Source of the DNA: Pseudoleptotrichia goodfellowii
Lineage (GTDB): Bacteria > Fusobacteriota > Fusobacteriia > Fusobacteriales > Leptotrichiaceae
Direction: 5' to 3'
NCBI RefSeq assembly: GCF_007990505.1
Contig: NZ_AP019822.1
Coordinates: 1,550,001 to 1,614,000 of the forward strand
DNA length: 64,000 bases
Positions 46,565 through 56,014 of this stretch are shown here, piece after piece; the first letter of the stretch is position 1, and each line of letters begins with the position of its first letter. The notes below the pieces were generated by a model, which saw only the letters and a program-made list of their open reading frames with translations, did not search any database and was not told the DNA's origin. Made by a program: the position numbers and the translations under genes.

Positions 46565-46819
46565 TTAATAATGATTTGCACAAGCTATTATTATAATTTC
46601 CTCTTCGGTAATTCTGTATATAAATCTATGCTTATCGGTTATTCTTCTGCTCCAAAATCCGCTAAATTCATGTTTTAAAGGCTCCGGCTTCCCTATCCCC
46701 TCGTTTCCGTTTCTTTCTATATCTTTTATCAGCTCATTTATTTTCTTAACAACCTTTTTATCTTCAGACTGCCATTTTACATATTCTTCCCATGCTTTAT
46801 TATTCCAACTTATTTTCAT
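46565..46819 (-). CDS. yoeB: YoeB/Txe-family toxin
   Basis: An 84-residue RelE-fold, ribosome-dependent mRNA endonuclease. It starts MKISWNNKAWEEYVKWQSEDKK and ends KHRFIYRITEEEIIIIACANHY, with the family's Arg and terminal His-Tyr. I chose this ATG because GAGGTGGAG lies just upstream; it follows the yefM stop by one base. Confidence 0.93.
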   Translation of the reverse strand: MKISWNNKAWEEYVKWQSEDKKVVKKINELIKDIERNGNEGIGKPEPLKHEFSGFWSRRITDKHRFIYRITEEEIIIIACANHY

Positions 46820-46820
46820 G

Positions 46821-47078
46821 CTACTCCACCTCAATTATATCGTGTTCTTCCACTAACCCCGCTTCCACTTCCGCTTTTCTTTTAAGTAATTCGTTATAAT
46901 ATTTCTTATTCGACATAATATAAAGATTTTCCATAAGATTATTATACTCGTCTTCACTCATTAAAACGACATTTTTATTTTCTTTTCTTGTTATAATGAT
47001 TGTTTCAAAGTCGTCAGTCGCTTTGTCGCAATAATCTTTAAAGTTATTTCTTGCACTTGAATAATTTACAGCTATCAT
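46821..47078 (-). CDS. yefM: YefM/Axe-family antitoxin
   Basis: An 85-residue Phd/YefM antitoxin: MIAVNYSSARNNFKDYCDKATDDFETIIITRKENKNVVLMSEDEYNNLMEN is the DNA-binding, dimerising part; the acidic C-terminal tail (KAEVEAGLVEEHDIIEVE) would wrap around YoeB. A consensus promoter with an embedded TGTACA operator core lies upstream. Confidence 0.93.
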   Translation of the reverse strand: MIAVNYSSARNNFKDYCDKATDDFETIIITRKENKNVVLMSEDEYNNLMENLYIMSNKKYYNELLKRKAEVEAGLVEEHDIIEVE

Positions 47079-48063: not shown

Positions 48064-48576
48064 TTATTCTGCATTCATTCTTTCAATTTTATTCTTAACT
48101 GCTTCTGCTCGTGCTGTTTGCACAATAATAAAAGTATGATCCAGCACTCTTTCAATCTCTATTGTCTTTTTATCATTATAAAACAAAATTCTTCCTTTTT
48201 TCTCAATTTTTGTCATTTTACTTTTGGAAAGTTTACTTTGGTTATTTTTATACATTTTTATAATCTTCTCATGCTCTTCGTCACTCGTCTGCGAGTCAAA
48301 AATAACTGAAACCAATCTCCCGTTCACAAAATTAAAGCTATTAAACTGTCTTTCAACTCCCATAGGGTCTTTCACATCTGAAAAATAATAAACTGCATAA
48401 TCTCCTTCATCGTGAGAATTACTTAAAGGCTGTTTATTAATAACCTTCCCAAATTCCTGTTTTGTCATCCCGAATTTTATCGTATCTGTAATTTTTTCTC
48501 CGTAACTTTTTTCATATTCATCTCCGAAAATAAATAACGAAAATATCAACATTAAAGATAGTATTAATTTTTTCAT
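48064..48576 (-). CDS. Exported hypothetical protein
   Basis: A 170-residue protein with a signal peptide (MKKLILSLMLIFSLFIFGDE). The mature part (IKFGMTKQEFGKVINKQPLS) has a BamE/SmpA-like opening, a single small beta domain found in envelope assembly proteins, but the match is weak and no lipobox is present. It ends a cluster of five or six small exported proteins. A terminator follows. Confidence 0.7.
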   Translation of the reverse strand: MKKLILSLMLIFSLFIFGDEYEKSYGEKITDTIKFGMTKQEFGKVINKQPLSNSHDEGDYAVYYFSDVKDPMGVERQFNSFNFVNGRLVSVIFDSQTSDEEHEKIIKMYKNNQSKLSKSKMTKIEKKGRILFYNDKKTIEIERVLDHTFIIVQTARAEAVKNKIERMNAE

Positions 48577-48609: not shown

Positions 48610-49053
48610 TTAATTTCCCATTACTCTGTCCAATTTTTTTATTATATTTCCGTCTTTATCTGTGATTACCACTGTTTTCAGTTTTTCATCAAATCCGAAA
48701 TATAATCTTTTATATTTCTTTCCTTTGGAATCCACATAATTATTTATATAATAAATTCCTTTTTTTCCTGAAGGATGTATTACATAACTTCCGTAAAGAT
48801 TTACTTTATCGGTTTCTACAATTTCTCCTCCTGTATTTTCCTTATTTTCATATACCTGATATAATTTCCATATATGTTTATCATTATCATAAATCAAAAA
48901 CTTATATGTTTCGTTTTCATCCATCCATAATGAAGAATATCTGTCCGTTTCCGCATCCCATAATTTCTTCCACGTTGTATTATTTGTAGTAATTTTTGCT
49001 GCGAAAGTTATCATTCCTAATACTAACATTCCTGTTAAGATTAATTTTCTCAT
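48610..49053 (-). CDS. Exported hypothetical protein, paralogue A
   Basis: A 147-residue exported protein (signal MRKLILTGMLVLGMITFAAK). It is clearly homologous to the gene at 49780-50256: both have KITT-N-TW, the block SYVIHPSGKKGIYYINNYVDSKGKKYKRLYFGFDEKLK and the ending VVITDKDGN. Function unknown. Confidence 0.75.
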   Translation of the reverse strand: MRKLILTGMLVLGMITFAAKITTNNTTWKKLWDAETDRYSSLWMDENETYKFLIYDNDKHIWKLYQVYENKENTGGEIVETDKVNLYGSYVIHPSGKKGIYYINNYVDSKGKKYKRLYFGFDEKLKTVVITDKDGNIIKKLDRVMGN

Positions 49054-49080: not shown

Positions 49081-49674
49081 TTATTTCAAATTAACATTTC
49101 CTGCACCGTCTACAAGCCATTTCCCGTTTTGTTTTACTACTTTTACAGGGATTTCTACATTAAGATCTTCACTTTTTCCATCTACTATAACTTTCGGATC
49201 TGTTGAAAGTACGTTAGTATTTGTAAGAACCGCAATTCCTGTTTTTTCATTATAGGAAATTACTTTAAAAACAGGTTTTTCCCCTACATTCATAATAGCT
49301 GCAGAAAATATAGGATCATATTCCGTACCGCTGTAATTTTCCAAATATTTCTGAGCCTGTTTAAGTTTTGCCAACTCTTTACTGTCCTGAGTTTCAAGTA
49401 TTTTACTGCTTATTTCAATATATTGAGCATATTTTTTGTACTCTTCTCTGAATTTTTTTGTTGTTCCTGCTTTTTCCATCCATTTATCAGAGGAATAATC
49501 TTGGCTTTTAAGATACCCGTTAATAAATTTTTCTGCCTGTGCTACAGCCGCTTTTTTTTCCGATTCCGAACTCGCAACTTTTACACTTTTTTTAGTCGTT
49601 GCCGCACTTGCATTTACGTTTATTACTCCTACCGAGATTACTGCTAATACTCCCATTAATAATACTTTTTTCAT
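49081..49674 (-). CDS. Exported hypothetical protein
   Basis: A 197-residue exported protein (signal MKKVLLMGVLAVISVGVINVNASA). After a Lys/Ser/Glu-rich linker it forms a compact domain that ends IPVKVVKQNGKWLVDGAGNVNLK, similar in layout to DUF4878-type lumazine-binding-like small exported proteins (a similar QNGKWKW ending occurs in the 50349 gene). Its promoter carries the shared direct repeat. Confidence 0.7.
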   Translation of the reverse strand: MKKVLLMGVLAVISVGVINVNASAATTKKSVKVASSESEKKAAVAQAEKFINGYLKSQDYSSDKWMEKAGTTKKFREEYKKYAQYIEISSKILETQDSKELAKLKQAQKYLENYSGTEYDPIFSAAIMNVGEKPVFKVISYNEKTGIAVLTNTNVLSTDPKVIVDGKSEDLNVEIPVKVVKQNGKWLVDGAGNVNLK

Positions 49675-49734: not shown

Positions 49735-49778
49735 ATTTTATCACACTAAGCTTAAAGTAAACTGAAAATTTTTAATTT
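49735..49778 (-). promoter_or_regulatory. Shared direct-repeat promoter, copy A
   Basis: On the minus strand TTTCAG (49762-49767), N5, TTTAAG (49751-49756), N10, TAAAAT (49735-49740), preceded by AAATTAAAAATTTTCAG. Upstream of the 49081-49674 gene. Confidence 0.65.
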
Positions 49779-49779
49779 T

Positions 49780-50256
49780 TTATCCTGCTATATATAATTC
49801 CAATTTTTCTGATATATTTCCGTCTTTATCCGTAATTACTACTTTTTTCAATTTTTCATCAAATCCGAAATACAATCTTTTATATTTTTTCCCTTTTAAA
49901 TCTATAAAATTATTCACATAGTAAATTCCTTTTTTCCCTGACGGATGTATAATGTATGAACCTGTATATCCCATTACAGTGCCGTCATCCGACTGATCCT
50001 CACTTACATCATCTCCTCCTGCACTTCTTCTGTCACTGTAAAACTGATTTAAAACCCATATATGATTGTTATTTTCATCAACTGTAAACAAAAATCTTAC
50101 CTTTTCTATTTCTTCTTTACTCATCCACGTTCCTGAATATTCTCCGTTCATATCGGGTGCCTGAAGTTTAGCCCATGTCATATTTCCGGTCGTAATTTTT
50201 TCTCCGAAAACTAATGCTCCTAACATCACCATTCCTACTAACAATAATTTTCTCAT
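49780..50256 (-). CDS. Exported hypothetical protein, paralogue B
   Basis: A 158-residue exported protein (signal MRKLLLVGMVMLGALVFGEK), paralogous to 48610-49053, sharing the SYIIHPSGKKGIYYVNNFIDLKGKKYKRLYFGFDEKLK block. It has an extra acidic insert (GGDDVSEDQSDDGTVM). Its promoter carries copy B of the direct repeat. Confidence 0.75.
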   Translation of the reverse strand: MRKLLLVGMVMLGALVFGEKITTGNMTWAKLQAPDMNGEYSGTWMSKEEIEKVRFLFTVDENNNHIWVLNQFYSDRRSAGGDDVSEDQSDDGTVMGYTGSYIIHPSGKKGIYYVNNFIDLKGKKYKRLYFGFDEKLKKVVITDKDGNISEKLELYIAG

Positions 50257-50298
50257 TTTTATCTCCTCTTTTTCTTTGCTTGATTTATTTACTAACTT

Positions 50299-50343
50299 AT
50301 TTTATCATTTGAAACTGAAAATAAACTGAAAATTTTTAATTTT
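50299..50343 (-). promoter_or_regulatory. Shared direct-repeat promoter, copy B
   Basis: TTTCAG (50326-50331), N5, TTTCAG (50315-50320), N10, TAAAAT (50299-50304) on the minus strand, upstream of paralogue B. Both half-sites are identical here. Confidence 0.7.
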
Positions 50344-50348
50344 ATTTT

Positions 50349-51281
50349 TTAATCAAATGCCGAAACGTTCCATTTCCATTTTCCGTTTTGTTTTCTTATT
50401 TCTCTTGCATAACTCGTATCACTGTAATAATTATCTTCATTTTCATAATCTTTTTTTGTCAATTTGGAAAAATATTCTTTGAAAACTTCTTCTGTTACTT
50501 TTGAATACTCATTTATTGTTTTTCTCATATCCTCTTTTGTTTTCATATTCATTTTTGCTTCTTCTACCGTTTTTCCCGTTTTCTTTTTAAATCTTTCGGC
50601 TATTTCATTTTTCACTTTTTCTTCTTCTTTTTCATTTTTCAGATACATTCCGGTCGAAAGTTTTCTCGCCTCTATTGTTACATAAGCTTTATCTTTTGTT
50701 TCATAATTTACTCTTACTATTTTTCTTTTTGCCGTATCAAATTCCGCCATTGCTCTTCCCAGATCAAATCCTACAGTAATTATAAAGTCAGGAGTACTTA
50801 AATCATTTAAAAAATATTCTTCCTGAATATCAATGTTTCCTTTTAAAAATTTCTCTTTTGAAATACTTGTCAAATATGCAATTTCTATTTCTTTATTATT
50901 TTTTTTAAGCTCTGCATCTGTCATTATAACAGGAGAAATTTCTAATTCTTTGAACTTTTTAATATTTTCCTGATACAATTTCGGATTTGTATTTTTTATT
51001 TTTTCATTTTCATTTTTTATATAATTTACAAATAAATCTATACTTTGATCATCGTAAAAATCCGTTATATCCGAATAATATTTATAAAACATTTCAAAGC
51101 CTTCATCATATTTTTTATTTCCGATTAGATTTTTTATCTTCGATAACTTTTCTTTATCTGAACGATTTTCTTCCGATTTTTGATTTATTTCAGCATTTCT
51201 GATTGTTGTTATATCTGACATTGAAATAACGCTCAACATTGAAAATAAGAACAGTATTTTCTTCAATATTCCTTTTTTCAT
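50349..51281 (-). CDS. Exported hypothetical protein
   Basis: A 310-residue protein with a signal (MKKGILKKILFLFSMLSVISMS) and a helical, Lys/Glu-rich mature part ending YAREIRKQNGKWKWNVSAFD. The last part resembles that of the 49081 gene product. No enzyme motif visible. GGAGGTGA lies before its start; 15 nt after the PepSY-like gene. Confidence 0.7.
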   Translation of the reverse strand: MKKGILKKILFLFSMLSVISMSDITTIRNAEINQKSEENRSDKEKLSKIKNLIGNKKYDEGFEMFYKYYSDITDFYDDQSIDLFVNYIKNENEKIKNTNPKLYQENIKKFKELEISPVIMTDAELKKNNKEIEIAYLTSISKEKFLKGNIDIQEEYFLNDLSTPDFIITVGFDLGRAMAEFDTAKRKIVRVNYETKDKAYVTIEARKLSTGMYLKNEKEEEKVKNEIAERFKKKTGKTVEEAKMNMKTKEDMRKTINEYSKVTEEVFKEYFSKLTKKDYENEDNYYSDTSYAREIRKQNGKWKWNVSAFD

Positions 51282-51296
51282 AATTCACCTCCGTTG

Positions 51297-51659
51297 TTAT
51301 AATCCGAATACGCTTATTTTAAAGCCTTCATTCTGTTTTTTTGTTCTTTCCTGTTGTTTATGCTCCATTATATTTCCTGTATTTGCATCTACACGATAAA
51401 TATATTTTTTTGCAGCTGTAAAAAATTCTATGTCGTAAAAATATTTCCTGTTTTCTTTGTACAACATTAATTTAGTTATTCTGGCTGCACTTTTATTAAT
51501 TTTCGAATGTGAAAATACAATCTCTTTTGCTTTTTGAGTAGAAATAGATACATTAATATTAGAAATTTTTACTCCCGTTTCTTCTTCGGAAAAACTGAGG
51601 ATACCACTTCCAATCGTTAAAATTCCGATAAATACAATCCGAAATATTTTCTCTCTCAT
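51297..51659 (-). CDS. Small exported PepSY-like protein
   Basis: A 120-residue protein with a signal (MREKIFRIVFIGILTIGSGILSFS) and a PepSY-like unit: INVSISTQKAKEIVFSHSKINKSAARITKLMLYKENRKYFYDIEFFTAAKKYIYRVDANTGNIM. PepSY domains often inhibit peptidases; the metallopeptidase genes pepO lie next to it, though on the other side of a terminator. First gene of the cluster. Confidence 0.8.
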   Translation of the reverse strand: MREKIFRIVFIGILTIGSGILSFSEEETGVKISNINVSISTQKAKEIVFSHSKINKSAARITKLMLYKENRKYFYDIEFFTAAKKYIYRVDANTGNIMEHKQQERTKKQNEGFKISVFGL

Positions 51660-51689
51660 TTTTCTCCTTTCTCTCCTCTTTCCTGAATT

Positions 51690-51733
51690 ATCATATCATT
51701 TAAAACTTAAAATAAACTGAAAATTTTTAATTT
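51690..51733 (-). promoter_or_regulatory. Shared direct-repeat promoter, copy C
   Basis: TTTCAG (51717-51722), N5, TTTAAG (51706-51711), N10, TATGAT (51690-51695) on the minus strand, upstream of the PepSY-like gene; the same AAATTAAAAATTTTCAG precedes it. Confidence 0.65.
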
Positions 51734-51878: not shown

Positions 51879-53903
51879 TTACCATATTTTTATTCTGTCC
51901 TTAGGTTCTTTATAAAGTTTGTCGCCTTTCTTTGTTTTAAAAATCTCATGGAAACTGTCCATATTTTCCAACACTCCGTTTACACGATAATAAGCCGGTG
52001 CGTGCGGGTCGGATTTTATCATATTTTTCAATCTTTCTTCAGTTTCTTTCTCTCTCCATGATCTCGCATAACTTATAAAGAAGAGCTCTTCCTGTGTGTA
52101 ACCTTCAAATTTAACATTTTTTTCGGGATGATCTTTCAAATATAGCTTCAAAGCATCATAAGCTATATTTGTTCCTCCCAAGTCGGCTATATTTTCAGTC
52201 AATGTAAATACTCCGTTCAAATGAACTCCCTTTGCAACAGTGTATTTTGAAAACTGATCGACTAATCTTTTCGTTTCTGTATCAAATTTCTTTCTGTCCT
52301 GTTCAGTCCACCATTCTTTAGCATTACCGTCGCCGTCAAAGGATGCTCCTGCCACATCAAATCCGTGTGTAGATTCATGTCCTATAACCGCTCCTATTCC
52401 TCCGAAGTTGATTCCCGGTTGGGAAGTATAGCTGTAAAAAGGTAACTGTAATATTCCTGCAGGAAACACTATTTCATTTTCGGTAGGTGAATAATAAGCA
52501 TTTACTTCATGGGCATTCATTCCCCATTCGTCTTTGTCTACAGGCTTTCCGACCTTTTTCAAATCATTATTATAATTCCATTTTTTTATTTCGGAAATTT
52601 TATCATATAAAGAAGTATTTTCACTTATCTTAAGAGTTTCAAAGTTTCTCCATTTATTCGGATAACCTATTTTAGAGTTTATTTTACCCAATTTTTCAAG
52701 GGTCGCTTTTTTAGTCTGACTGCTCATCCACGTAAGCTTCTCTATTCTGTTTCTAAATGCCTCTTTTATGTATTTAACCATTTCTTCAGTACTTTTTTTA
52801 GCTTCTTCGGAAAAGTTTTTTTCAACATAAACTTTTCCCACAATTTCTCCAAGCTCACTGTCTACAAAATCCAATGCCCTTTTTTCAAGATTATCTCTTT
52901 CTTTTTGACCGCTTAAATATTTTCCGTAAAATTCAAATCTTCTGTTTGAAGTTTTTTCATCGAGCAGTTCTGCAGAATCCGATATTAAGTGAAATTTCAA
53001 ATAATCCTTAATCACTTCAAGATTGGAATTATTTATAAACTTATCCAGATTTTCATAGTATTTAATTTCCGGTGTGTTGACATCGCCTGTATTCACTCCG
53101 ACCTGCTTTAAAAAATCGGAAATATTTATATTTTTTATTTTCTTAGCCAATTCACTGACTTTTACAGGATTGTTATATTTAGTTATATCATCCAGTTCTT
53201 CATCAGTGAGCAGTATTTTTCCTATTTTTTTTTCAAATTCGACTATCTTTTTTGCTTTTTCTTCAGTATCTTTTTCGCCTAAATAGCTTAACATATCGCT
53301 TACATATTCAGTGTATTCGTCCAACACTTCTTTATCTTCTTCTGTATCGCCTTTAAAATACGATCTTGATAATCCTAATTTTGGTGTATCCAAAAATATT
53401 CCGTAATTTCGTGCTTCATTCAAATCCGTACTTACTGACCAGTCATAAAGCAGTCTTGTTCCGTCTTTACTTTTTTTTATGGCATACTTTTGAAAATCAT
53501 TCAGATTTTTAATTGAATTTATTGTGTCCAAATCATTTTTTAAAGGCTTCAGTCCTGCTTTATTTCTTTCTGCTACATTGTAATAGGAATTATACAAAGT
53601 CAGTATTTTCTTCTCATCGGAATTTTCCGAAAGTTTTTTGTTTTTTATTTCGGATATTAGATCCTTTAGAAATCCCTGATTTTTCTCAATTAATTCATCA
53701 GTAACTCCCCAGCCTGATCTCGTGGAAGGTATTTTTGTCTGTTTATCCCAATTTCCATTCACAAATTTGAAAAAATTATCCTGAGGTCTTTCAGTTTTGC
53801 TCAAATCATTAATTAAGGACTTATCACTATATTTTTCCTGAACAGCACTTTTACCGAATGTTACTGCAGTTGCCAAAAGCAACAAAATCAAAGCTTTTTT
53901 CAT
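51879..53903 (-). CDS. pepO: M13-family metallopeptidase (PepO/neprilysin-like), downstream copy
   Basis: A 674-residue zinc endopeptidase with a signal peptide (MKKALILLLLATAVTFG), so periplasmic or outer-membrane facing. Zinc motif HESTH at about residue 509, the third ligand in ENIADLGG, substrate-binding NAYYSPTENEIVFPAGILQ and the C-terminal DPHAPAYYRVNG. It is a close paralogue of the gene 23 nt upstream. Cleaves oligopeptides; natural substrates unknown. Confidence 0.93.
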   Translation of the reverse strand: MKKALILLLLATAVTFGKSAVQEKYSDKSLINDLSKTERPQDNFFKFVNGNWDKQTKIPSTRSGWGVTDELIEKNQGFLKDLISEIKNKKLSENSDEKKILTLYNSYYNVAERNKAGLKPLKNDLDTINSIKNLNDFQKYAIKKSKDGTRLLYDWSVSTDLNEARNYGIFLDTPKLGLSRSYFKGDTEEDKEVLDEYTEYVSDMLSYLGEKDTEEKAKKIVEFEKKIGKILLTDEELDDITKYNNPVKVSELAKKIKNINISDFLKQVGVNTGDVNTPEIKYYENLDKFINNSNLEVIKDYLKFHLISDSAELLDEKTSNRRFEFYGKYLSGQKERDNLEKRALDFVDSELGEIVGKVYVEKNFSEEAKKSTEEMVKYIKEAFRNRIEKLTWMSSQTKKATLEKLGKINSKIGYPNKWRNFETLKISENTSLYDKISEIKKWNYNNDLKKVGKPVDKDEWGMNAHEVNAYYSPTENEIVFPAGILQLPFYSYTSQPGINFGGIGAVIGHESTHGFDVAGASFDGDGNAKEWWTEQDRKKFDTETKRLVDQFSKYTVAKGVHLNGVFTLTENIADLGGTNIAYDALKLYLKDHPEKNVKFEGYTQEELFFISYARSWREKETEERLKNMIKSDPHAPAYYRVNGVLENMDSFHEIFKTKKGDKLYKEPKDRIKIW

Positions 53904-53926
53904 AGTATTACTCCTTCCGTTTTATA

Positions 53927-56014
53927 TTACCATATTTTTATTCTGTCTTTAGGTTCTTTATAGAGTTTTTCTCCTTTTTTTGTTTTAAATGTATTGTGGA
54001 AAGCGTCAATATTTATTAAAAGTCCGTTCACACGGAAATAATTCGGTGAATGAGGATCCGATTTTACAAGATTTTTCAAATATTCTTCAGTCGCCTTTTG
54101 ACGCCATATTCTTGCAAAGTTCATAAAAAATAGTTCGTCCTGTGTGTATCCGTCTACTTTAACATTTTTTTCGGGATGATCTTTCAAATATAACTGTAAA
54201 GCGTCATAAGCTATATTTACTCCTCCTAAATCCGCTATATTTTCAGTTAATGTAAATTTACCGTTTACATAGACATTAGGTGCAACAGCATATTCGGAAA
54301 ACTGATTTGCCAGTTTTTCTGTTACACTGTCAAATTTCTTTTTATCTTCTTTTGTCCACCAGTCTTTCACATTGCCGTCCCCGTCAAAAGAAGCTCCCGA
54401 TACATCAAATCCGTGGGTAATCTCATGCCCTATAACAGCTCCGATTCCTCCGAAATTACTTCCCGTTCCGGATTTTTTATAATCGTAAAAAGGAAACTGC
54501 AATATTCCCGCAGGAAATACTATTTCATTTCCCGAAGGAGAATAATAAGCATTTACAGTATTTGCACTCATAAACCATTCAGTTTTGTCCACAGGTTTTC
54601 CGACTTTTTTCAGTTCTTCTTTATATTCCCATTTACTAATATCTTCCATTTGTTTATATAAAGAATCTTTTTCATTTAAAACTATTTCATCAAAATTACG
54701 CCATTTATCGGGATAACCTATTTTAACCGTAACTTTTGCCAACTTTTCAAGGGCTTTTTTCTTAGTAGCCTCGCTCATCCATGTCAGATTTTCCATTCTG
54801 TTACGGAAAGCCTTGAAAATATAATCTACCATTTCCTTGGCATTTTGCTTGGCTTCAGGCGGGAAGTTTTTCTCCACATAGACTTTTCCTATCATTTCTC
54901 CCAATGTTCCGTCTATAAAGTATAATGCTCTTTTTTCGAGTTTTTCTCTTTCTTTCTGACCGTTCATATATTTTCCGTAAAATTCAAATCTTCTTTGAGC
55001 AAGTTTATCGCTTAAAAGCCCTGAAGCCGATGAAATCAAATGAAACTTCAAATAATCCTTTATTACTTCGATATTCGAGTCGTTTAAAAATTTATCCAGA
55101 TTTTCATAGTATTTTATCTGGGAAATAATAACTTTATCGGTATTTACTCCCGACTCTTTCAAATAGTTTTTCAAGTTCACATTTTTTACTATTTTCGACA
55201 ATTCGTCAACTTTTCTCGGATTGTTTTTTTTGCTTATATCGTTTTCTTCTTCATTTGTGAGCAGAACTTTTGCTATCCGTTTTTCAAATTCCACTATTTT
55301 TCGGGCCTTTTCCTCAGTATTTTTCTCTCCCAAATTGGACAGCATATCACTCACATATTTAGTATATTCTTTTAAAATCTCTTTATTTTCCTCAGTTTCT
55401 TTCTGGTAATAATCTCTTGATAATCCCAATCCTGCAGATCCCAAATAAACGGCATTATCTTTAGATGAATTAAGATCTGTTCCTACTCCCCACTCGTATA
55501 AAGTTCCTCCTCCTTCTTTTGTAACTTCTATTGTATATTTTTCAAAATCTTTAATATTTTTTACAGCATTTATTCTTTCCAAATCATTTTTCAAAGGAGC
55601 TATACCCTCTTTGTTTCTTCTGTTCATATTAATATAAGAATTATAGAGAGTTATTATCTTTTTTTCATCGGAATTTTCAGCCAATTTTTTATTTTTCAGC
55701 TCGGAAACCAGATTTTTTAAAAAATCCTGATTCTTTTCCGCCAATTCTGTAAATGATCCCCAGGCAGGCTTTGTAGAAGGAATTTTTGTTCTTTTTTCCC
55801 AATTCTCATTTACAAATTTATAAAAATCCTCCTGCGGCTTTATATTTTTACTTAAATCTTTTGTCAATTCTGCATCTCCTTCGGGAACTGCAGAATTTTT
55901 ATTTTGAATTTCCGAAACATTTGATTTGATATTTTTAATATTTTTCTGCTTTTCAACACCGTAATTTACTCCTAAACACAGTAAAAACAATGAAACTGCC
56001 GATAATTTTTTCAT
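53927..56014 (-). CDS. pepO: M13-family metallopeptidase (PepO/neprilysin-like), upstream copy
   Basis: A 695-residue paralogue: signal (MKKLSAVSLFLLCLGVNYG), a longer polar linker (about residues 20-50), HEITH at about residue 530, ENIADLGG, NAYYSPSGNEIVFPAGILQ, and DPHSPNYFRVNG. It leads a two-gene operon behind a near-consensus promoter. The high similarity and identical gene order indicate tandem duplication. Confidence 0.93.
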   Translation of the reverse strand: MKKLSAVSLFLLCLGVNYGVEKQKNIKNIKSNVSEIQNKNSAVPEGDAELTKDLSKNIKPQEDFYKFVNENWEKRTKIPSTKPAWGSFTELAEKNQDFLKNLVSELKNKKLAENSDEKKIITLYNSYINMNRRNKEGIAPLKNDLERINAVKNIKDFEKYTIEVTKEGGGTLYEWGVGTDLNSSKDNAVYLGSAGLGLSRDYYQKETEENKEILKEYTKYVSDMLSNLGEKNTEEKARKIVEFEKRIAKVLLTNEEENDISKKNNPRKVDELSKIVKNVNLKNYLKESGVNTDKVIISQIKYYENLDKFLNDSNIEVIKDYLKFHLISSASGLLSDKLAQRRFEFYGKYMNGQKEREKLEKRALYFIDGTLGEMIGKVYVEKNFPPEAKQNAKEMVDYIFKAFRNRMENLTWMSEATKKKALEKLAKVTVKIGYPDKWRNFDEIVLNEKDSLYKQMEDISKWEYKEELKKVGKPVDKTEWFMSANTVNAYYSPSGNEIVFPAGILQFPFYDYKKSGTGSNFGGIGAVIGHEITHGFDVSGASFDGDGNVKDWWTKEDKKKFDSVTEKLANQFSEYAVAPNVYVNGKFTLTENIADLGGVNIAYDALQLYLKDHPEKNVKVDGYTQDELFFMNFARIWRQKATEEYLKNLVKSDPHSPNYFRVNGLLINIDAFHNTFKTKKGEKLYKEPKDRIKIW

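What the first reader, a model, noticed from the sequence alone, without database searches (positions are those of the whole stretch)
49735..51733. Three exported-protein promoters share a TTTCAG-N5-TTTMAG repeat at fixed distance from the -10
At 49735-49778, 50299-50343 and 51690-51733 two hexamers 11 bp apart sit exactly 10 nt upstream of TAAAAT, TAAAAT and TATGAT, with the same AAATTAAAAATTTTCAG flank, and no good -35 hexamer. An 11-bp direct repeat replacing the -35 is how OmpR-family response regulators (for example CiaR, TTAAG-N5-TTAAG) bind. Inference: a small envelope-stress-type regulon controls this cluster.
Basis: partly seen in the sequence, partly recalled or inferred. Interest (0 to 1): 0.65.

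Follow-up and report, generated by a model that had tools for sequence, protein, structure and literature searches.

The report
Two-component regulon with CiaR-like promoter boxes
Three promoters in this window carry an 11-bp-spaced DNA repeat that occurs at seven promoters in the genome, one of them in front of a response-regulator gene, so a two-component sensor system very probably switches on this cluster of exported proteins together with four other transcription units.

Summary
TTTMAG-N5-TTTMAG-N10-TANNAT occurs 7 times in the 2.29-Mb genome (0.08 expected from an order-3 Markov simulation; 0 reversed controls). All seven have spacer TTTAY, an extended -10 (TGn), no good -35, and lie directly before a gene. 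Three are the window promoters. The others precede a SIMPL pair, a DUF4153 membrane protein, a DUF4189 protein, and an operon for an OmpR-family response regulator (here RR1), histidine kinase, PepSY protein and TPR protein. In relatives the same box precedes homologues of the same targets. In G021 homologues of most of the window cluster lie directly behind the RR1-kinase pair. Across 33 family genomes the box co-occurs with the RR1 clade (8 of 9 RR1 genomes versus 1 of 24 others), not with its close paralogues. In five more distant genomes of the order the homologous regulator gene has TTTAAT-N5-TTTAAT-N10 at its own promoter. Most likely RR1~P binds as a head-to-tail dimer in place of -35 contacts, as CiaR and PhoP do, and activates a small, self-reinforcing envelope regulon. 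The signal is not shown; PepSY neighbours suggest DbfQRS-like envelope sensing. New member of a known kind.

The parts
49735..49778 (-). Regulated promoter 1: A/T flank 49768-49778, box 49751-49767 (TTTCAGTTTACTTTAAG), 10-nt spacer ending TGA, -10 TAAAAT 49735-49740; drives the 197-aa gene and probably the two genes behind it
   Evidence: site ends 60 nt before the ATG of 49081-49674
50299..50343 (-). Regulated promoter 2: box 50315-50331 (TTTCAGTTTATTTTCAG), -10 TAAAAT 50299-50304; before the 158-aa gene
   Evidence: the same box precedes homologues in G009, G013, G021, G030, G032
51690..51733 (-). Regulated promoter 3: box 51706-51722 (TTTCAGTTTATTTTAAG), -10 TATGAT 51690-51695; before the PepSY gene
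   Evidence: box before PepSY genes in G001 and G002
51297..51659 (-). Exported PepSY-domain protein, 120 aa
   Evidence: Pfam PF03413 26.2 bits, cut-off 24; 49% identical to the PepSY protein behind the RR1-kinase pair in the same genome
50349..51281 (-). Exported protein, 310 aa, second gene of the promoter-3 unit
   Evidence: shares a 60-residue module (56% id) with the TPR protein of the RR1 operon; no Pfam hit
49780..50256 (-). Exported protein, 158 aa, predicted mainly beta; family found beside boxes in relatives
   Evidence: fold matches not significant
49081..49674 (-). Exported protein, 197 aa; homologues behind boxes in G002, G009, G025
   Evidence: fold matches weak, some NTF2-like, none with E <= 0.001
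48610..49053 (-). Exported protein, 147 aa, paralogue of the 158-aa protein (54% id), no box of its own; presumably read through from promoter 1
48064..48576 (-). Exported protein, 170 aa; homologues in the RR1 loci of G021 and G025 (48-54% id)

Best explanation
The repeats are operator boxes of one OmpR-family response regulator, RR1 (genome C1:424870-425553, about 1.17 Mb from the window), encoded with its histidine kinase, a PepSY protein and a TPR protein. When the kinase phosphorylates RR1, a head-to-tail dimer binds the two TTTMAG half-sites one helical turn apart, over the place of the -35 and exactly 10 nt upstream of an extended -10, and recruits sigma-70-type RNA polymerase to promoters that otherwise lack a usable -35. 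Targets are seven transcription units: RR1's own operon (positive autoregulation), the three window units, a SIMPL pair, a DUF4153 membrane protein and a DUF4189 protein. Shown here: box, geometry, regulon, autoregulatory position, conservation with the same targets, co-occurrence with the RR1 clade. Inferred: binding, activation, phosphorylation dependence, envelope perturbation as signal, and the secreted PepSY proteins acting back on the kinase as in DbfQRS.
For: (1) 7 genomic hits versus 0.08 expected, all directly upstream of and codirectional with a gene. (2) One hit is 38 nt before an OmpR-family regulator gene (Response_reg + Trans_reg_C) followed by a HAMP/HisKA kinase, PepSY and TPR genes. 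(3) Orthologous RR1 in G002 (83% id) has ATTCAG-N5-TTTAAG-N10-TAGAAT 99 nt upstream. (4) The same targets carry the box in relatives: SIMPL in G001/G002, DUF4153 in G009, 158-aa family in five genomes, 197-aa family in G002/G009, PepSY+TPR in G001/G002. (5) Homologues of the window's PepSY, 158-, 197- and 170-aa proteins lie directly downstream of the RR1-kinase pair in G021, with boxes between the genes. (6) Box and RR1 clade co-occur in 33 genomes: 8 of 9 against 1 of 24 (G001, an 82%-complete assembly); Fisher p 5.6e-6, 1.8e-5 without the discovery genome, 0.005 within genus g3 alone; a looser pattern gives 9 of 9. (7) In five more distant genomes of the order the homologous regulator promoters have TTTAAT-N5-TTTAAT-N10-TANNAT, and three have another such box directly behind the kinase. 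(8) RR1's putative recognition helix IVEVYIKFLRKKI resembles that of CiaR, VVEVYVSKVRKKL.
Against: No binding or expression data. Relatives are not independent, so the Fisher values overstate significance. The RR1 orthologues of G009 and G021 have no box in the 260 nt upstream, so autoregulation is not universal. RR2 in the same genome (69% id) has a similar helix, VIEVYIRYLRKKI, and cross-binding cannot be excluded. One further 1-mismatch site (893804-) lacks the extended -10 and is doubtful.
Confidence: 0.85

Rival explanations
1. The boxes are bound by a different regulator, such as the close paralogue RR2 (C1:16070-16747) or another winged-helix protein; RR1 merely belongs to its regulon.
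For: RR2 is 69% identical with a similar recognition helix and also has PepSY neighbours; a weak box-like site (2 mismatches) lies behind its kinase.
Against: Genomes that have RR2-type or c-type paralogues but not RR1 (G011, G012, G018, G024, G026, G027, G031) show no box at up to one mismatch; the looser pattern gives one hit in G012, without the extended -10. RR1 has the box in its own promoter in two species; the RR2/c loci examined show no such box before the regulator.
Confidence: 0.1
2. The similarity is inherited: promoters were copied together with duplicated exported-protein genes, and the repeat has no regulatory role.
For: The three window sites share 28 nt almost identically and the cluster contains paralogues (158 and 147 aa, 54% id).
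Against: The same box precedes unrelated genes (regulator, SIMPL, DUF4153, DUF4189) far apart in the genome, while the 147-aa paralogue has none; conserved positions are half-sites, spacer and -10, whereas the 10-nt gap drifts.
Confidence: 0.03
3. The motif is the recognition sequence of an alternative (ECF-type) sigma factor or a constitutive extended -10 promoter with an A/T-rich upstream element, not an activator site.
For: A/T-rich flanks and an invariant TG extended -10 are present.
Against: The two half-sites repeat at 11 bp (one DNA turn), the nearer one ends 10 nt from the -10, too close for a -35; the boxes track a response-regulator clade.
Confidence: 0.04
4. RR1 binds the boxes but represses, blocking polymerase at the -35 region (a variant of the best explanation, not exclusive with its binding claim).
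For: The position over the -35 would also permit repression.
Against: No usable -35 exists at any of the seven, and the strict 10-nt phasing is that of activators such as CiaR.
Confidence: 0.1

Closest known systems
CiaRH of streptococci (CiaR box NTTAAG-N5-TTTAAG; PMC3091779)
   Same: OmpR-family regulator, hexamer repeat with N5 spacer, 10 nt to the -10, third T, second A and last G invariant, small regulon, similar recognition helix
   Different: Fourth base usually C in the first half-site here (TTTCAG); spacer fixed as TTTAY and an extended -10 present; targets found here are exported or membrane proteins, no small RNAs were looked for; PepSY/TPR genes in the operon; different bacterial group
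PhoP of Salmonella (PhoP box (T/G)GTTTA-N5 repeat overlapping the -35; PMC3335776)
   Same: Hexanucleotide direct repeat with N5, head-to-tail dimer, box overlapping the -35
   Different: Different half-site; RR1 scores below the PhoP model cut-off (152.7 against 336)
DbfQRS of Vibrio cholerae (PMC12714742)
   Same: Small secreted PepSY protein encoded beside a regulator-kinase pair; operon appears positively autoregulated; that paper notes PepSY-kinase neighbourhoods in Fusobacteria
   Different: Here PepSY genes follow the kinase and a second one is a target at a distant locus; direct PepSY-kinase binding and membrane-damage sensing are untested
BasR/PmrA and DrrD (solved structures 8jo2/4s04, 1kgs)
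   Same: Among RR1's nearest solved relatives by sequence (1kgs E 1.3e-63; 8jo2 E 1.6e-42)
   Different: PmrA equivalog cut-off not reached (206.8 against 330); box resemblance to the PmrA box is from memory, not tested

Membership tests
OmpR/PhoB-family response regulator | Receiver domain plus C-terminal winged helix (Trans_reg_C) | tested here: met
   PF00072 109.5 bits and PF00486 93 bits, both over cut-off
OmpR-type direct-repeat operator | Two hexamers 11 bp apart, overlapping the -35, fixed distance to the -10 | tested here: met
   7 of 7 genomic sites
OmpR-type direct-repeat operator | Bound by the regulator | not testable with these tools
   Needs footprint or EMSA
CiaR box | NTTAAG-N5-TTTAAG with 10 nt to the -10; last G essential | tested here: inconclusive
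   Geometry and last G met; first half-site TTTCAG in 6 of 7 deviates
CiaRH | Orthology to streptococcal CiaR/CiaH | not tested
   No CiaR sequence was compared; only the published recognition helix
DbfQRS-like module | Secreted PepSY protein within four genes of a kinase or regulator | tested here: met
   PepSY PF03413 27.5 bits directly behind the kinase; also in G002, G009, G021, G025
DbfQRS-like module | PepSY protein binds the kinase sensor domain; system responds to outer-membrane damage | not testable with these tools
   Needs binding assay and reporter
PmrA (NF007928) / CopR subfamily (TIGR01387) | Score over curated cut-off | tested here: not met
   206.8 against 330; 252.4 against 279.2

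The most novel reading that the evidence does not exclude
An ancient envelope-sensing system of the whole order, in which the regulator's boxes have drifted between TTTAAT and TTTCAG/TTTAAG along with its binding domain, and in which secreted PepSY proteins, one encoded with the kinase and one at a second regulated locus, feed back on the kinase.
Probability: 0.4. Interest if true: 0.65.

Novelty: new member of a known kind. Interest (0 to 1): 0.52.

Why it matters
Regulation in this group of bacteria is little described: searches of the open literature found no regulon or binding site for such a system, and in Fusobacterium nucleatum the targets of ArlR, for example, were stated to be undescribed (PMC12153266). 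Here one sequence-level reading yields a regulator, its box, seven promoters and a testable feedback circuit, and gives first functional context to several families of exported proteins of unknown function.

Tried and rejected
A variable-spacing search showed that the bare repeat without TTTAY and -10 is common by chance. Fold searches for the 158-aa family (weak lipocalin-like matches, E 0.24 or worse) and the 197-aa family (weak NTF2/VirB8-like, best E 0.009) gave nothing significant. A close-relative scan of genome contigs returned only distant regulators, the best of them from Firmicutes, and gave no name for the host. 1-mismatch sites at 24058- and 1306803+ lie inside reading frames and were discarded.

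Full report
Observation. The 28-nt block AAATTAAAAATTTTCAGTTTAYTTTMAG occurs three times in the window and never in 100 shuffles. No -35 hexamer better than 4 of 6 exists at any spacing of 15-19 nt, and all sites have TG one base before the -10.

Genome-wide test. The window lies at 1550001-1614000 of a 2.29-Mb single-contig genome. The full pattern TTTMAG-N5-TTTMAG-N10-TANNAT has 7 hits and 0 reversed controls. An order-3 Markov simulation (276 Mb) expects 0.08. The N5 spacer was left free in the search, yet all seven read TTTAY; conversely all seven exact TTTMAG-TTTAY-TTTMAG 17-mers in the genome have TANNAT exactly 10 nt on. The bare repeat without these constraints is not rare (about 10 expected), so the motif is really box plus spacer plus extended -10. 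A sequence profile of the seven gives E from 8e-10 to 1.3e-3; the next hit is antisense in a GTPase-like frame.

What the seven promoters drive. (a) C1:424799+, 38 nt before RR1, an OmpR-family response regulator; then a HAMP-HisKA-HATPase kinase, an exported PepSY protein and an exported TPR protein. (b) C1:1022916+, two SIMPL-type exported proteins (the first by Pfam, the second by similarity of its start, read by eye). (c) C1:1384646-, a DUF4153 membrane protein. (d) C1:499302-, a DUF4189 exported protein. (e-g) the three window units: PepSY plus 310-aa protein; 158-aa protein; 197-aa protein with 147- and 170-aa genes behind it. Exported status is read from N-terminal hydrophobic signal-like sequences by eye, not by a predictor.

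The link between window cluster and regulator. The window PepSY protein is 49% identical to the one behind the RR1 kinase, and the 310-aa protein shares a module with the operon's TPR protein. In genome G021 homologues of the window's PepSY, 158-aa, 197-aa and 170-aa proteins follow the RR1-kinase pair directly, with two exact boxes between the genes. In our genome the cluster is thus, on the simplest reading, a detached satellite of that locus.

Conservation. In relatives the box precedes the same kinds of genes: SIMPL (G001, G002), DUF4153 (G009), 158-aa family (G009, G013, G021, G030, G032), 197-aa family (G002, G009), PepSY plus TPR (G001, G002), RR1 itself (G002). A tree of regulators defines an RR1 clade (support 0.98) in nine of 33 family genomes; boxes at up to one mismatch occur in eight of those nine and in one other, G001, an 82%-complete assembly that has a kinase fragment 69% identical to ours. 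The ninth, G025, has TTTAAG-TTAAA-TTTAAG-N10 in its RR1 locus. A looser pattern finds 34 sites in the RR1 genomes plus G001, 31 with the extended -10, and 4 sites elsewhere, none with it. Fisher p is 5.6e-6, or 1.8e-5 without our genome, 0.005 within genus g3; shared ancestry makes these optimistic.

A wider echo. Regulator homologues of 57-60% identity in five genomes of another family in the order have TTTAAT-N5-TTTAAT followed after 10 nt by a -10, 54-78 nt before their start codons; three of these genomes have another such box directly behind the kinase, before a small exported protein. TTTAAT is a low-complexity word, but the reversed control gave 3 hits against 15 over ten genomes.

Mechanism. 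Established knowledge: OmpR-family regulators dimerise on phosphorylation and bind direct repeats 11 bp apart head to tail; PhoP boxes can overlap the -35 (PMC3335776) and CiaR boxes stand 10 nt from the -10 (PMC3091779). The anatomy here is the same, so activation by a dimer replacing -35 contacts is the best reading. The site before RR1 predicts positive autoregulation. PepSY proteins next to kinases have a precedent: DbfQ binds the kinase DbfS, shifts it to phosphatase activity, and the system responds to outer-membrane damage (PMC12714742). I infer, without test, that the PepSY proteins here restrain the kinase and that the signal concerns the envelope.

Limits. No binding or expression data exist here. 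Cross-binding by paralogue RR2 remains possible.

Verdict.

Noticed in passing
window 46565-47078 (-): Two overlapping short genes that look like a YefM/Phd-type antitoxin (46821-47078) and a YoeB/RelE-type toxin (46565-46834), judged by eye only.
   Followed up: no
window 51879-56014 (-): Two tandem, similar genes that look like exported M13-family metallopeptidases lie upstream of the regulated cluster; the first was confirmed by Pfam; they have no box.
   Followed up: partly
L210 (genome C1:12000-19500) and L211 (C1:434000-441500): Two further regulator-kinase pairs (69% and 48% identical regulators) in the same genome also sit beside genes that look like PepSY proteins, so this genome seems to have at least three PepSY-linked two-component systems.
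   Followed up: partly
window 50349-51281 and L038:7372-8259: Residues 55-115 of the 310-aa window protein match the last 60 residues of the TPR protein of the RR1 operon (56% identity), a module in different positions of otherwise different proteins.
   Followed up: no
L193-L207: In another family of the order TTTAAT-N5-TTTAAT-N10 boxes precede the homologous regulator gene and a small exported protein (YDYVEDxLELKY), in three genomes next to the kinase.
   Followed up: partly
L054-L066: The regulator's closest hits in the named genome collection are 55-62% identical proteins of Firmicutes such as Lachnospiraceae and Erysipelotrichaceae, which may point to old gene transfer; relatives of the window's own genome may be left out of that collection search.
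   Followed up: no
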